Under the pieces are notes generated by a model that made no database searches, was not told the DNA's origin, and saw only the letters and a list, made by a program, of their open reading frames with translations. Shown piece by piece: positions 32,301-38,300 of a stretch of 64,000 nt of DNA (positions within the stretch are counted from its first letter, which is position 1; each line of letters opens with the position of its first letter). Position numbers and translations under genes: made by a program. The DNA is taken from the NCBI GenBank assembly GCA_963921795.1, contig OY997659.1, positions 25,733,149 to 25,797,148 of the forward strand. Reading direction: 5' to 3'. Source of the stretch: Nannobrachium achirus. Taxonomy: Eukaryota > Chordata > Actinopteri > Myctophiformes > Myctophidae.

Positions 32301-35300
32301 TATATTTTCCCATCAGCAAAGCAGCAAGGCAGTTAAAATCACAAGACAAAAGGTTATGTGGATTTCCTCTTCTATATGAATTCCACGCTATGCAAGGACA
32401 TTTATTTTACCTTCGTTTTTTCCAACAATGGTGGCATCTTGATAGTGATGCATATTCATGAGCACAGATGTATAGATAACTTAAAAGTTGATGATTATAT
32501 AGATCTTTTATTTCATATTTCTCTACGTTTCCATTTATAATTGCATGTTCCATGTGACCTTGTGCCCTTTCAATCTAATATGTCACAAGCCATTAACAGT
32601 AGGGTTTGTCCTGATGGAGGAGGATTGTCCTTGGGTATATGTTTTATGAAATTCTCATTGGCACTAAAACGCAATAGGTATTTCCATCATTCGGATAGTT
32701 TACAGTTCCACATGGTAATGTATTCCCAGGTCACAGTAGACTGTCATGCAGTATACAGTATATTGCGTCTATCGTAATTTTTCAATCTTTGAAATATGTC
32801 TACCTGTCAAAGACGGTTGGAACATTCCAACATAGATTTGATTAATCTTCCCTGCGTTGCACAGTGTTTTGGTACACAGCAGCGGAACAACCATACTGTC
32901 TTTCCCAATGGAACCCATATTTATTCGGCATGACTGCCTTTTTCTTTTTTTCTTTTTTTTTCAATTGGTTCTGCTGAGTTCATATTTGTAAACCCATGGT
33001 GAGCACTCATCTAGGCAAAGTATGCATCACTACTACATCACTACTACAGTACCACCACACTGACTTTAACCACTTCAACCCTGTGGGGCCTATTTTCCTT
33101 CCAACGCAGTCCGCACTGGCGGAAGCGAACTTCTTAAAGAGCTGGTGCCATAGTTTTGTACTTTTTCTGTTTTGTATGTGTCTATGGAGTTGACATTACT
33201 CTAATAGACCTCCAAGTGTGGCTATAATGTGCAGGTTTTTGGTTACTTCCTGAAAGCTGAAAGACGAAAAACACAGATTAAATTACATCATATAATCATC
33301 CCCTCCCCTTTAACCATTCACCCAACACTGTGGGTGTGGCTAACCTCAGCTGGGCCACCAGACAACCAGGCATACTTAATGAACTGGAGGGTGTGGCCAC
33401 ATAAAAACCCAATTTTAACACTTTCTGTACACTTAAAAAAAACTTCCTCCTAGTATAATCATAATACCTGATCATCATGTTTTAGGGGGGGGGGGGGGGG
33501 ATCACGGCACTGCATCTTTAAAGCTATCGTCCTACCAGTGCATGTCAAATTTCTATCACTTGCACATTTTCAGCTTTTTGCTATTCTGTAAAACCTGTTA
33601 GTTAGATAGTATCTATCTATGCATTCACGAGTGAGTTGTCACCAGCATCTCAAGAACCACCCAACCCATGAACTTGAAACTTGAGGGACTGATACAATAA
33701 ATATAAAGAAATTGTAATATAACAAGTTACTATTATGTTTTGAGTGATAATATAATAATAATAATACAGATACAGTTAGTTACTCGTTCGTAATCACAGC
33801 TTACTGTAGTAGTGAGTGTAGTATGATTAGCGTGTTGTCATGAATTTGAGGCTAAAAGCCCGGTAGGAGCGAGATCATTTAGCGACCTACAACCGGGTCG
33901 CGACGTGGTCGTTAGTTTTCAGCGACCGGGTCGCTAAATCGAGCGACCGGGTCGCTAAATCGAGCGACCGGGTTGTTAAATCACCGACCGCGCCGCTAAA
34001 CCGACCGACCCGGTCGCTAAATCTACCGACCTGCCTGCAGTTTTAGGTCGGTAGATTTAGCGACCCGGTTGGTACATCTAGTGACCCGGTCGGAAGATTT
34101 TGCGCCCCAGTCGGTCGATTTAGCGACCCCGTCGCTCGCTTTAGCGGTGATTTAGCGACGCGGTCGGTGATTTAGCGACCCGGTCGGGAGGTTGCGTGGC
34201 AGGTTAGCCTAACTGAGGTAAGGTTACTGAGGTTAGGGTTAGGGTTAGGGTTAGGGTTAGGGTTAGGGTTAGTAGCCCGATGGTCGGTGGAAGCGACCAC
34301 CGGTCGGTGGATTTACCTACCCAGTCGCTGGATTAGCGTCCCGGTCGGTGGAATTAGCGTCCCGGTCGGTGGAATTAGCGTCCCGGTCGGTGGTTTTAGC
34401 GTCCCGGTCAGTGGTTTTAGCGTCCCGGTCGGTCGATTTAGCGAACCGGTCGGTGTTTTAGCGTCCCGGTCGGTGGTTTTAACGTCCTGGTCGGTGGTTC
34501 TAGCGTCCCGGTCGGTGGTTTTACCGTCCCAGTCGGTCGATTTAGCGACCCAGTCGCTGAAAATTACCGACCACGTCGCGACCCGGTTGTAGGTCGCTAA
34601 ATGATCTCGCCCTCTCTCTAAAAGCCTTCAGGCAGTGGTGCAGTATACTCGGTGCAGTGGACCTCGATCTCCATACCTACCACAACATTATATGTTCTCT
34701 CTCCCCCTGATCTGTTCCGTTTTCAAGCAACGGCAGCTTTCATAGTTTAAGTATGCCTGATTTCTACAGATTCATTGTAGATAGCTGATCTACAAGCCCA
34801 TAACACAGCTTGCTGTGACGTGTTGTGAACTATTTGCGTAACTTGGGCATGCTGCAAACTCCACTCCATCCGAGAAAGCTTTTGTTTAGCAGTCCCTATG
34901 TCGACAGACTTAGACAATCTTGAGGCTTTATTTCAAACGGTATTGCGTAACCAGTGGGGAATGCGTTCGTAACTAAATAATACAAAAATATTTCTCTAGT
35001 ATGGTTAATGAGTTTTTAAAGATAATGTTTGAATATAGAAGTTCCTTCAAATATAAGTCCTGGCGGTCCAAGTGCGGAGGGCCAAGCAAGGACCCTAAAT
35101 CTCTTTCTGTTGATTTTTGGTGCCGTATTCCTGGGGTCCAACCTATGTTCCCCAGGTTCTATGTTCCCCAGGTTCTATGTTCCCCACCTCACAGCATTAG
35201 TTTAGTGAGGTTATGGTTATGGTTAGGGTTAGGGTTAGGGTTAGGGTTAGGGTTAGGTGGTAAGAAAGTGGGGAACATAGAACCTGGGGAACATAGAACC

Positions 35301-38300
35301 TGGGGAACATAGGTACGGTCCCGTATTCCTAATCCCTGTATGCATATCTCTTATTTATTCAGTAGTTTTTTGGGGGGAGAGAGCTGACACGCAGCAAAGG
35401 TCGTCGGGATCGAGACTCGAACCCCCAACAACTACGCTTCTGTTTCTGTATCGGTTACTGTCATGACAACTGAATTTCCCTTGTGCGAGCAGTAAAGGTT
35501 TATCTAAATCCATGTCCCATTGACCCTGTCCAAGTATTACAAGACATTATTGTCTAGTAATGCATAACTTACTGCATAACATGCAGTTTGAATCTCCCTT
35601 TTGTCCGTAGCCACAACAGGCCATTACAGTACAGACCGTTCTTTGTGATGAAAGGTGTGATTATAATTGTGACTGCTATTTATATGACAGATATGGAAGG
35701 ACCAAGGATGCCATGAATGGAGGTAATGGAGCATGCGAAAGGTTGAAGATGTAAAATCGTTAACTGAAAAATTAATTATGGGAACTCGAGATGTATATTC
35801 AGTATGTGGGAAGGTTAATTGCTTGAGTCAGTGCCCTCTGTACTCTGTCTCCACATACTAAAAAATAAAGAAATAAGCTGTGAAGGTTAAACCTATGTGT
35901 CAAAGACATTAATTCATAGACATCACTGCAAAATCCAGTGTTGATCTAACACTTAAGGCCAATAGATACTGTACTACATTTTTAGAGCTGAAATAAATGT
36001 GGTTCGGCTTGGTCGGGTGTGTGGTACCCATCCTAATTTTGGCTGTTTGGTGTCGCCAAGATGTTGTGACACCCCAAATTTAGTTCGGCTTTCTGCATTG
36101 TTTCCGCTTTCATTCAGCCCATCTTCAAGTTTGTTATGTCAGCAGTGAAATTACCCAATAACTAGGGATGCACTGAAACCGATATGACTTGATTAATGTA
36201 TCGGATATCGGACAACGCATATTGGATATTGGACACGATAAAAAATATAAATATACTTATAAATATACAATATAATCACACAATTGTAAGCCCATAACCA
36301 AACGTTTTGGCATATAATTAAATTTACAATCTTATATTTACAATTGGCTTAAAGCCGCATCCCACTTCCAAGCCCATGGCACGCCCACTCTGCATCCACT
36401 CCAACTCTACTTCAACTCAACGGTAGGGAGAAGGACGTAGGGAATAATACCGCCCACCTCTATGCCGTCCGCTCATTCGCTAAGCACGAGAGAGAGGAGG
36501 CAACAGGGGAGGGGGGGCGGGCAAGCGAGAGAGAGAGAGAGAGAGAGTGAAATTTGACACCACTGTGTTTGCACTCACTGTGTCCACAGTGAGTGCAGAG
36601 AAATAGCAGAGGCATAACAGTCACTTCTCTCCAGTGCGTCCGGCGGTCAAATATGTCCGACCGGAAACGTGCGCTGCGGCACAATAGTTCCGCCACATTT
36701 TTTTTTTTTTTTTTTTTTTACTTTTTTTTACTTTTTTTCCCCCTTTTTTTAAACTTTTTTTTTTTTTTTTTACTTTTTTTTTTTTTTTTTTTAACTAGAT
36801 GGGAGCGGCCCGAAGGGCCGCAACCCTCTAGTATCCCACAATCTTATCCAGCAAACTTTTTTCGTCCACTCTGGTCTCAAGAGACGAGACACGAGTTGCC
36901 ATTGCATTTTGCACTTAGTTGCACTGACCGCACTTGTAAGTATCGGGTATCGGTATCGGGAAATATCAAAATGTATATATCGGAACAAAACCTGTTTCGG
37001 TGCATCCCTAAATAAAACCCTTCAAATATACAGTAGGCTATAGACTGGGTGTGGTTGCTAAACCATTTTGGACAGAGTGGAGCAAATACATTTCTGCTGT
37101 GGAAATGTTAAAATGTGGCCATGGGACTATCACGATATCCTGACATATCAACTTAATCAACTCTCATTCTCAGTTATGTTCTCCTTTATTTAAACCACAA
37201 ATTAAAGCACAAGAACTTGTGTTGGAGTTCTATGGATGGATACGACTGTTAACTGCTCTCCACTGAGCAGAGACAGATTAAGAAAGCCAAGACGCAATGG
37301 TTCATGATTCATGATTCTATCAGCAATTAAGTGTAGAATAAATGCTATAAATCATTTCTATAAATTTCTCTCTCTGTCCCCTCCGTCTCCTCTCTGTGCA
37401 AATAAAATGGCACTTGCCCAACGCAATCTATTGTTAATCTGGTCCAGATCATTATTTTATTTTACCGTAATGTGGAGTCTCTCAGAAATGGCATCTACAG
37501 TGCCATGTTGAGCATAAGTGTTATTGTGTTGATTTTAGATGGATTTTTCTGTTATAAGTAGGTTTTTTAACCCCATTAAGACCTGAGGCCGATGTACAAA
37601 CACCTTCTAAAATCGAAAATCCTTCTAAGTTTTATGAAAAACTAAAACATTATGTTATATACTGCTATATGGTTGCTGTTGAGCAGAAACTATAGGCCCC
37701 CTAGCGTGTTCACGCCAGGGGGCTGTCTCCCATAAGTGAGACATTGAGTGAATAATATGAAAATTTACTTTTTGCTGTTTTTTCACACCCTACTTGATAA
37801 TACTACAACGTCACACTAAAGCATCAAAAGTAGCAGATTTACAAGCTCGAAACAAGTTTTGAGCTTTTAGATCTGCTACTTTTGCAATTCTTCTAAATTT
37901 GAATCCTGAAAAGTAACAGTTTTGGACATAATTTAGTTTCCACCCTACAGGGAAGATATAGTATGCCTGTATTTACAACAACTACACACAGAGGTGTTCC
38001 CAGCTTGAAGGGTATAACAACATAGGTGTTCCAGGTCTGCATCTAAAAGTATTACAGAGACACAGCGGTAACGTGCACTGCTCGCTGTGAACTCCATTTG
38101 GATCTGTTCAATATCATATTAATGATGGCCTTAGCCTACTCTATACAGAGACAGAATGCCAAGAGCCTATAGATTCATGAAATGTTTACCTTAATAAGAG
38201 GTATGTGAACAGTGAACACGTATCAGCAACACAAGAGGCACACATGAAAAAATGCATCTTTCTGTACGTTCTCTCCCTCTTTCTCTCCTTGTTGCTTGTC

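What the first reader, a model, noticed from the sequence alone, without database searches (positions are those of the whole stretch)
33861..35322. Two unrelated foldback elements, each with an internal telomere-repeat array, 514 bp apart
Both elements (758 and 190 bp) have perfect 8-bp target duplications (TAAAAGCC, GTATTCCT), arms made of short tandem repeats in opposing orientation, and a (GGTTAG)6-7 array inside. Their arm sequences are unrelated, so this is a shared architecture, not a shared ancestor copy. That suggests telomere-type repeats are repeatedly captured or made inside hairpin transposons, or that hAT-type transposase mobilises interstitial telomere repeats. The duplications are direct observation; the mechanism is inference.
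Basis: partly seen in the sequence, partly recalled or inferred. Interest (0 to 1): 0.85.

Follow-up and report, generated by a model that had tools for sequence, protein, structure and literature searches.

The report
Two hairpin transposons carrying telomere repeats
In what looks like an intron of a fish-like myosin gene sit two small hairpin-shaped, probably mobile elements with unrelated arms, each flanked by a duplicated target site and each holding a short array of chromosome-end repeats near its middle, which suggests that such elements may scatter telomere repeats through a genome.

Summary
Element 1 (33861-34618, 758 bp) and element 2 (35133-35322, 190 bp) are long inverted-repeat elements, each flanked by a direct repeat and each holding exact GGTTAG units (7 and 6). 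Random boundaries seldom have such flanking repeats: 24 of 30,000 (9 nt or more) and 16 of 30,000 (10 nt or more). Of the 45 strongest inverted repeats printed (of 93), only these two have a flanking repeat of 8 nt or more. Corrections: the longest exact flanking repeats are 9 and 10 nt, so 8 is not forced; and element 1's array lies between two blocks of equal orientation, not at a hairpin tip. Best explanation: two non-autonomous foldback DNA transposons, moved by an unidentified transposase, carrying the telomere repeats inside. "hAT-type" is not supported by the recalled hAT motifs. New detail: in both, the perfect arms begin exactly 8 nt inside the duplication and the outer octamers hardly pair. 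Copy number, the decisive test, could not be checked: the genome search failed in all 12 tries, and the collections that answered are not of animal genomes.

The parts
33853..33860 (.). Element 1, left copy of target duplication TAAAAGCC (longest exact repeat 33852-33860, CTAAAAGCC)
33861..34618 (.). Element 1, 758-bp foldback element
33869..34031 (+). Element 1 left arm: outer 43 nt perfectly complementary to the right arm, then about five 21-bp repeats (33923-34031)
34046..34187 (-). Element 1: 20- to 21-bp arm repeats in reversed orientation, left of the telomere array
34231..34272 (+). Exact (GGTTAG)7 array, its centre 12 nt from the midpoint of element 1
34300..34556 (-). Element 1: about twelve 21-bp repeats, same orientation as 34046-34187
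34448..34610 (-). Element 1 right arm, complementary to 33869-34031 (85% over 164 columns)
34619..34626 (.). Element 1, right copy of target duplication TAAAAGCC
35125..35132 (.). Element 2, left copy of target duplication GTATTCCT (longest exact repeat 35123-35132, CCGTATTCCT)
35133..35322 (.). Element 2, 190-bp foldback element
35141..35187 (+). Element 2 left arm, 2.8 copies of CTATGTTCCCCAGGTT within a 47-nt arm perfectly complementary to the right arm
35209..35257 (+). Telomere-type array (8.2 copies, 97%; exact (GGTTAG)6 at 35221-35256) between the arms of element 2
35268..35314 (-). Element 2 right arm
35323..35330 (.). Element 2, right copy of target duplication GTATTCCT

Best explanation
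Both are non-autonomous DNA transposons of the foldback kind. Each was inserted as a unit; a transposase supplied by another element cut the target with an 8-nt stagger (9 for element 1 and 9-10 for element 2 are not excluded), and gap filling made the flanking duplication. The tandem repeats of the arms would serve as repeated transposase-binding sites, as reported for Galileo. The GGTTAG array lies inside the mobile unit and travels with it, so the elements spread short interstitial telomere repeats. Shown by sequence: inverted arms, flanking duplications, arrays inside the duplicated boundaries, no detectable relation between the two arm sequences. Inferred: transposition itself, a transposase in trans, the role of the arm repeats, and that the arrays were already there at insertion. 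How an array got in is open; telomerase acting on a break at an extruded hairpin would fit element 2 best.
For: Flanking repeats rare by chance (24 and 16 of 30,000), and of 45 printed inverted repeats (of 93) only these two have one of 8 nt or more. Very stable hairpins. Perfect outer arms of 43 and 47 nt. No Pfam match at E 0.01 in the only stop-to-stop frames of 110 aa or more that overlap them (2 of 2), so no transposase of their own was seen. The same build and duplications of 8-10 bp are reported for Tetris, and extra transposase sites in the arm repeats for Galileo (abstract). Interstitial arrays of four or more units number 79-250 per genome in four mammals; two here within about 1 kb, both inside duplicated boundaries, argues that they came with the elements.
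Against: Each element is single-copy in the 64-kb window, and no copy was found in the collections that could be searched (one chance-level 20-base match), though none of these is a collection of animal genomes. The outer 8 nt of the ends pair at only 2 of 8 and 4 of 8 positions, unusual for terminal inverted repeats. No superfamily motif was recognised. There are two examples only, and the array density of the host genome is unknown.
Confidence: 0.75

Rival explanations
1. Ordinary foldback elements that lacked telomere repeats when they landed; the arrays were added later and independently, by telomerase at breaks in the hairpins. The repeats are then scars of hairpin fragility, not cargo.
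For: The arrays lie near the middle of each element (centre 12 nt from the midpoint in element 1; 5.5 nt in element 2, or 11 nt counting only its exact units), where a palindrome would break most readily; in element 2 the array is in the part between the arms. The 40-nt flanks of the two arrays are no more alike than shuffles (1747 and 4976 of 5000 shuffles as good), so a shared core is not shown.
Against: Two such additions within about 1 kb are less likely than arrays that came with the elements. In element 1 the array is not at the tip of the predicted fold.
Confidence: 0.14
2. Telomerase-assisted repair of staggered breaks: each locus is a break whose overhangs were filled in (giving the duplication), with telomere repeats added and copied filler DNA folding back to form the arms. 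No transposon is involved.
For: Short interstitial telomere arrays arise by break repair in mammals, and a minority have flanking duplications (6 rodent loci, 4.6%; 4 primate loci, 16%, passages). Array length and purity fit recent insertions as described there.
Against: It needs two independent events within about 1 kb, both with a duplication of similar size and both with long inverted arms of tandem repeats. The arrays lie inside the arms, not at the junctions. No telomerase RNA match was found at gathering score or among the 8 matches at E up to 1.
Confidence: 0.08
3. Chance or assembly artefact: palindromic minisatellites beside telomere-like microsatellites with coincidental flanking repeats.
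For: The window is rich in simple repeats (64 tandem-repeat rows), and the octamer TAAAAGCC occurs four times on its + strand. Unmasked, random boundaries give a 10-nt repeat in 159 of 20,000 for element 2.
Against: Masked, the counts fall to 24 and 16 of 30,000, and both elements have such repeats at their ends. GGTTAGGGTTAG with up to one mismatch: 12 matches against 0.25 expected.
Confidence: 0.03

Closest known systems
Tetris, foldback element of Drosophila virilis (PMC4079207; passages and one section seen)
   Same: Inverted arms with internal tandem repeats, no conserved reading frames, target duplications of 8-10 bp.
   Different: The arm repeat is about 220 bp there, 21 and 16 bp here; TTAGGG does not occur in that paper (listing). 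No sequence comparison was made.
Galileo, foldback-like member of the P superfamily (PMC3688188; abstract and outline seen)
   Same: Long, internally repetitive arms; the repeats hold extra transposase-binding sites.
   Different: Its duplication is 7 bp and its arms far longer (both recalled); no telomere core known to me.
Xmix/Xstir MITE of Xenopus (PMC6004289 and PMC9659126; passages seen)
   Same: A miniature inverted-repeat element that carries an amplified internal simple repeat.
   Different: It targets TTAA (Kolobok-like); its repeat is Xstir, and no telomere term occurs in PMC6004289.
Short interstitial telomeric sequences made by break repair (PMC2246262, PMC8537989; passages seen)
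   Same: Short, nearly exact TTAGGG arrays at internal chromosome sites.
   Different: There the array is the insertion; here it lies inside a hairpin with its own duplicated target. The 2021 paper holds that transposons did not spread the telomerase-RNA-flanked arrays.
Earlier links of interstitial telomere repeats with transposons (PMC6410037; passages seen)
   Same: That review names transposition by mobile elements as a possible source of heterochromatic arrays, and its reference list holds a report, by title only seen, of a hAT element co-located with such a sequence in armoured catfish.
   Different: Those concern large arrays at fusion or heterochromatic sites; here the arrays are 6-7 exact units inside small hairpins.
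TU elements of sea urchins and FB of Drosophila (recalled, nothing seen)
   Same: Foldback arms of tandem repeats; duplications of 8 bp (TU) and 9 bp (FB), as recalled.

Membership tests
Foldback DNA transposons | Long inverted arms containing tandem repeats | tested here: met
Foldback DNA transposons | Target-site duplication of about 8-10 bp | tested here: met
   Exact flanking repeats of 9 and 10 nt at most, 8 nt by symmetry; 24 and 16 of 30,000 by chance
Foldback DNA transposons | Dispersed copies at different sites | tested here: inconclusive
   No second copy in the window; genome search not answered in 12 tries; other collections are not of animal genomes
hAT superfamily | 8-bp target duplication | tested here: inconclusive
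   8 nt fits and is favoured by symmetry, but 9 (element 1) and 9-10 (element 2) are not excluded
hAT superfamily | Ends YARNG and duplication nTnnnnAn (motifs recalled, from no call) | tested here: not met
   0 of 4 ends; T at position 2 in 1 of 2 duplications, A at position 7 in 0 of 2; one 8-nt register tested
hAT superfamily | hAT transposase in the element or in an autonomous relative | not testable with these tools
   No Pfam match in the 2 frames of 110 aa or more overlapping the elements; no animal genome could be searched for an autonomous relative
Mutator superfamily | Target duplication of about 9 bp and a Mutator transposase | tested here: inconclusive
   A 9-nt reading is possible for both elements; no transposase to test
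Break-repair interstitial telomere arrays | Array inserted directly at the junction with pre-existing sequence | tested here: not met
   The arrays lie well inside hairpins whose outer boundaries carry the duplications; an empty orthologue was not testable
Telomerase-RNA-flanked arrays (TERC-ITS) | Fragment of telomerase RNA beside the array | tested here: not met
   No Rfam match at gathering score in 33001-36000; the 8 matches at E up to 1 in 33800-35400 are microRNA or archaeal sRNA models. A short fragment could be missed.

The most novel reading that the evidence does not exclude
The telomere array is not a passenger but the working core of a class of hairpin transposons whose arms are free to change: unrelated arms, same plan (8-nt target duplication, an almost unpaired octamer at each end, perfect outer arms, tandem arm repeats, GGTTAG array near the midpoint). 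Such elements would use telomere-binding proteins, G-quadruplex formation (both arrays fit the motif) or telomerase in their life cycle, and would be a source of interstitial telomere repeats in vertebrates.
Probability: 0.12. Interest if true: 0.85.

Novelty: new variant of a known kind. Interest (0 to 1): 0.5.

Why it matters
The papers seen here explain short interstitial telomere arrays in vertebrates by telomerase acting at broken DNA (passages), and a 2021 survey concluded that transposons did not spread the telomerase-RNA-flanked kind. Two arrays inside transposon-like boundaries would point to a second route, one that predicts many copies, duplicated targets and empty sites in relatives. 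It can be tested in any good assembly of the host or its kin.

Tried and rejected
hAT membership: ends and duplications do not fit the recalled motifs. Shared ancestry of the two cores: a look-alike stretch before both arrays was seen by eye (ending TGAGGTTA in both), but local alignment of the 40-nt flanks was no better than shuffles; the shared part overlaps the array itself and was not tested apart. Shared ancestry of the arms: 8 comparisons, none above shuffles. The outer octamers as an older target duplication carried along: by eye they are not direct repeats of each other in element 1 (1 of 8 positions) and only partly so in element 2 (5 of 8).

Copies elsewhere: no match in five scans of viral contigs, in phages or plasmids (element 1 only). 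Prokaryote genomes gave none for element 2's arm and one exact 20-base match for element 1's arm in a Clostridia bin; the similarity there is confined to about 27 bases at one place, so I take it as chance. The pattern scans were exact and each used one short arm motif, so diverged copies would be missed.

MicroRNA reading: Rfam matches at E up to 1 are far below gathering scores and fit any long hairpin. Papers: ten searches listed no paper that I recognised, from titles and first lines of abstracts, as describing foldback elements with telomere cores. Only open-access papers are held and lists were cut at 10-20 rows, so this is weak evidence. Twelve papers were opened, none read whole. The coral MITE paper (PMC2872659, abstract and passages) has no telomere term; PMC6947457, PMC11071193 and PMC3143072 (passages) gave nothing used.
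Full report
SETTING. The window is animal DNA. A frame at 26100-26474 matches a protein kinase (E 1.3e-05, below Pfam's own cut-off), and frames at 57936-58310 and 59007-59339 match a myosin head above the cut-off. All are on the + strand; together they look like a class III myosin gene (naming recalled). The repeats give the impression of a ray-finned fish (recalled, not tested). The two elements lie between the kinase and motor frames, so most likely in an intron.

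ELEMENT 1 (33861-34618, 758 bp) is flanked by TAAAAGCC; the longest exact repeat is CTAAAAGCC, 33852-33860 and 34618-34626. Its arms, 33869-34031 and 34448-34610, align over 164 columns at 85%, with the outer 43 nt identical. Inside are 21-bp repeats: about five copies in one orientation (33923-34031), a turn at about 34032-34045, reversed copies at 34046-34187 and, past the telomere array, about twelve more at 34300-34556 in the same reversed orientation. The exact (GGTTAG)7 array at 34231-34272 is centred 12 nt from the midpoint of the element but is not at the tip of the predicted fold.

ELEMENT 2 (35133-35322, 190 bp) is flanked by GTATTCCT; the longest exact repeat is CCGTATTCCT, 35123-35132 and 35321-35330. 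Its arms are 47 nt, 100% complementary, built on 2.8 copies of a 16-bp unit. Between the arms lies the GGTTAG array: 8.2 copies at 97%, six of them exact in a row. The elements are 514 nt apart, or 498 nt between the 8-nt duplications.

IS IT MORE THAN CHANCE? Folding energies lie 19 and 13 standard deviations beyond shuffles (0 of 20 and 0 of 200 as good). Direct repeats as long as those observed, sought in the same way around 30,000 random boundary pairs with tandem repeats masked, were found 24 times (9 nt or more, element 1) and 16 times (10 nt or more, element 2); at 8 nt or more the counts are 115 and 123. Without masking, 16 and 159 of 20,000, the higher figure probably due to microsatellites. 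Of 93 inverted repeats that passed a low-complexity filter, the 45 highest-scoring were printed; only the two elements had a flanking repeat of 8 nt or more. The window has no other run of three or more GGTTAG units on either strand.

A FURTHER DETAIL. In both elements the arms become perfectly complementary exactly 8 nt inside the duplication on both sides, while the outer 8 nt agree at only 2 of 8 and 4 of 8 positions. On the left the 8-nt offset is fixed by the sequence; only an 8-nt duplication makes the right offset equal to it, so the symmetry favours 8 over 9 or 10. Two cases may be coincidence. Transposons with subterminal, not terminal, inverted repeats exist (Dada), so it does not speak against a transposon.

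WHAT IT IS. Both are best read as non-autonomous foldback DNA transposons. Tetris of Drosophila has the same build and duplications of 8-10 bp. In Galileo the arm repeats hold further transposase-binding sites, which its authors suggest give binding specificity (abstract); the same role is inferred here. The only frames of 110 aa or more that overlap the elements have no Pfam match, and the elements look too small to code for a transposase (inference). The superfamily is open: P and hAT make duplications of about 8 bp, and the group of hAT, Kolobok, P and MuDR spans 4-10 bp; the Tetris authors place most foldback elements in Mutator. The hAT label fails the recalled end and target motifs.

THE TELOMERE ARRAYS. 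In mammals short interstitial arrays are described as one-step insertions at broken DNA; four species have 79-250 loci of four or more units each (passages). The density in this host is unknown. The simplest reading is that the arrays moved with the elements. Whether each family gained its array separately cannot be told: the arms are unrelated, and the flanks of the arrays are no more alike than shuffles. No telomerase RNA fragment was detected. A healing event at a hairpin tip would fit element 2 better than element 1.

WHAT IS IN PRINT. A review seen in passages mentions transposition by mobile elements as a possible source of large heterochromatic arrays and cites a hAT element beside such a sequence in a catfish; a 2021 survey argues against transposons for the telomerase-RNA-flanked kind. 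Ten searches of the open-access library listed no paper that I recognised as describing telomere arrays inside foldback elements.

LIMITS. The collections that answered are of prokaryotes, phages, plasmids and viral contigs. Within the 64 kb each element is unique, which neither supports nor refutes a family.

VERDICT. A new variant of a known kind, with a testable and possibly important consequence for how telomere repeats spread.

Noticed in passing
33861-33868, 34611-34618, 35133-35140, 35315-35322: The outer 8 nt of the element ends agree at only 2 of 8 and 4 of 8 positions although the next 43 or 47 nt are perfectly complementary, in both elements.
   Followed up: partly
60350-61416: About 1.06-kb element between two TTAA sites with inverted ends AGGAGTAGTTCACC / GGTGAACTACTCCT. 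TTAA plus the end motif AGGRR are the marks given for Kolobok-like T2 MITEs of Xenopus. It holds a further palindrome at 61148-61318.
   Followed up: partly
40315-40540: 78-nt inverted repeat (78% complementary) with TGTCA near both ends; possibly an older transposon.
   Followed up: no
about 39874-40177: By eye, a stretch of well over 100 bp is repeated once head to tail, each copy ending in palindromic GCTAGCTAGCGCTAGC-type repeats.
   Followed up: no
44179-45532: Two neighbouring frames that look like a retroelement; the first matches reverse transcriptase (RVT_1, E 5.9e-24), the second has no Pfam match.
   Followed up: partly
62561-63285: Minisatellite with 94-bp and 247-bp periods, rich in CCCACGTGGG-type words.
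   Followed up: no
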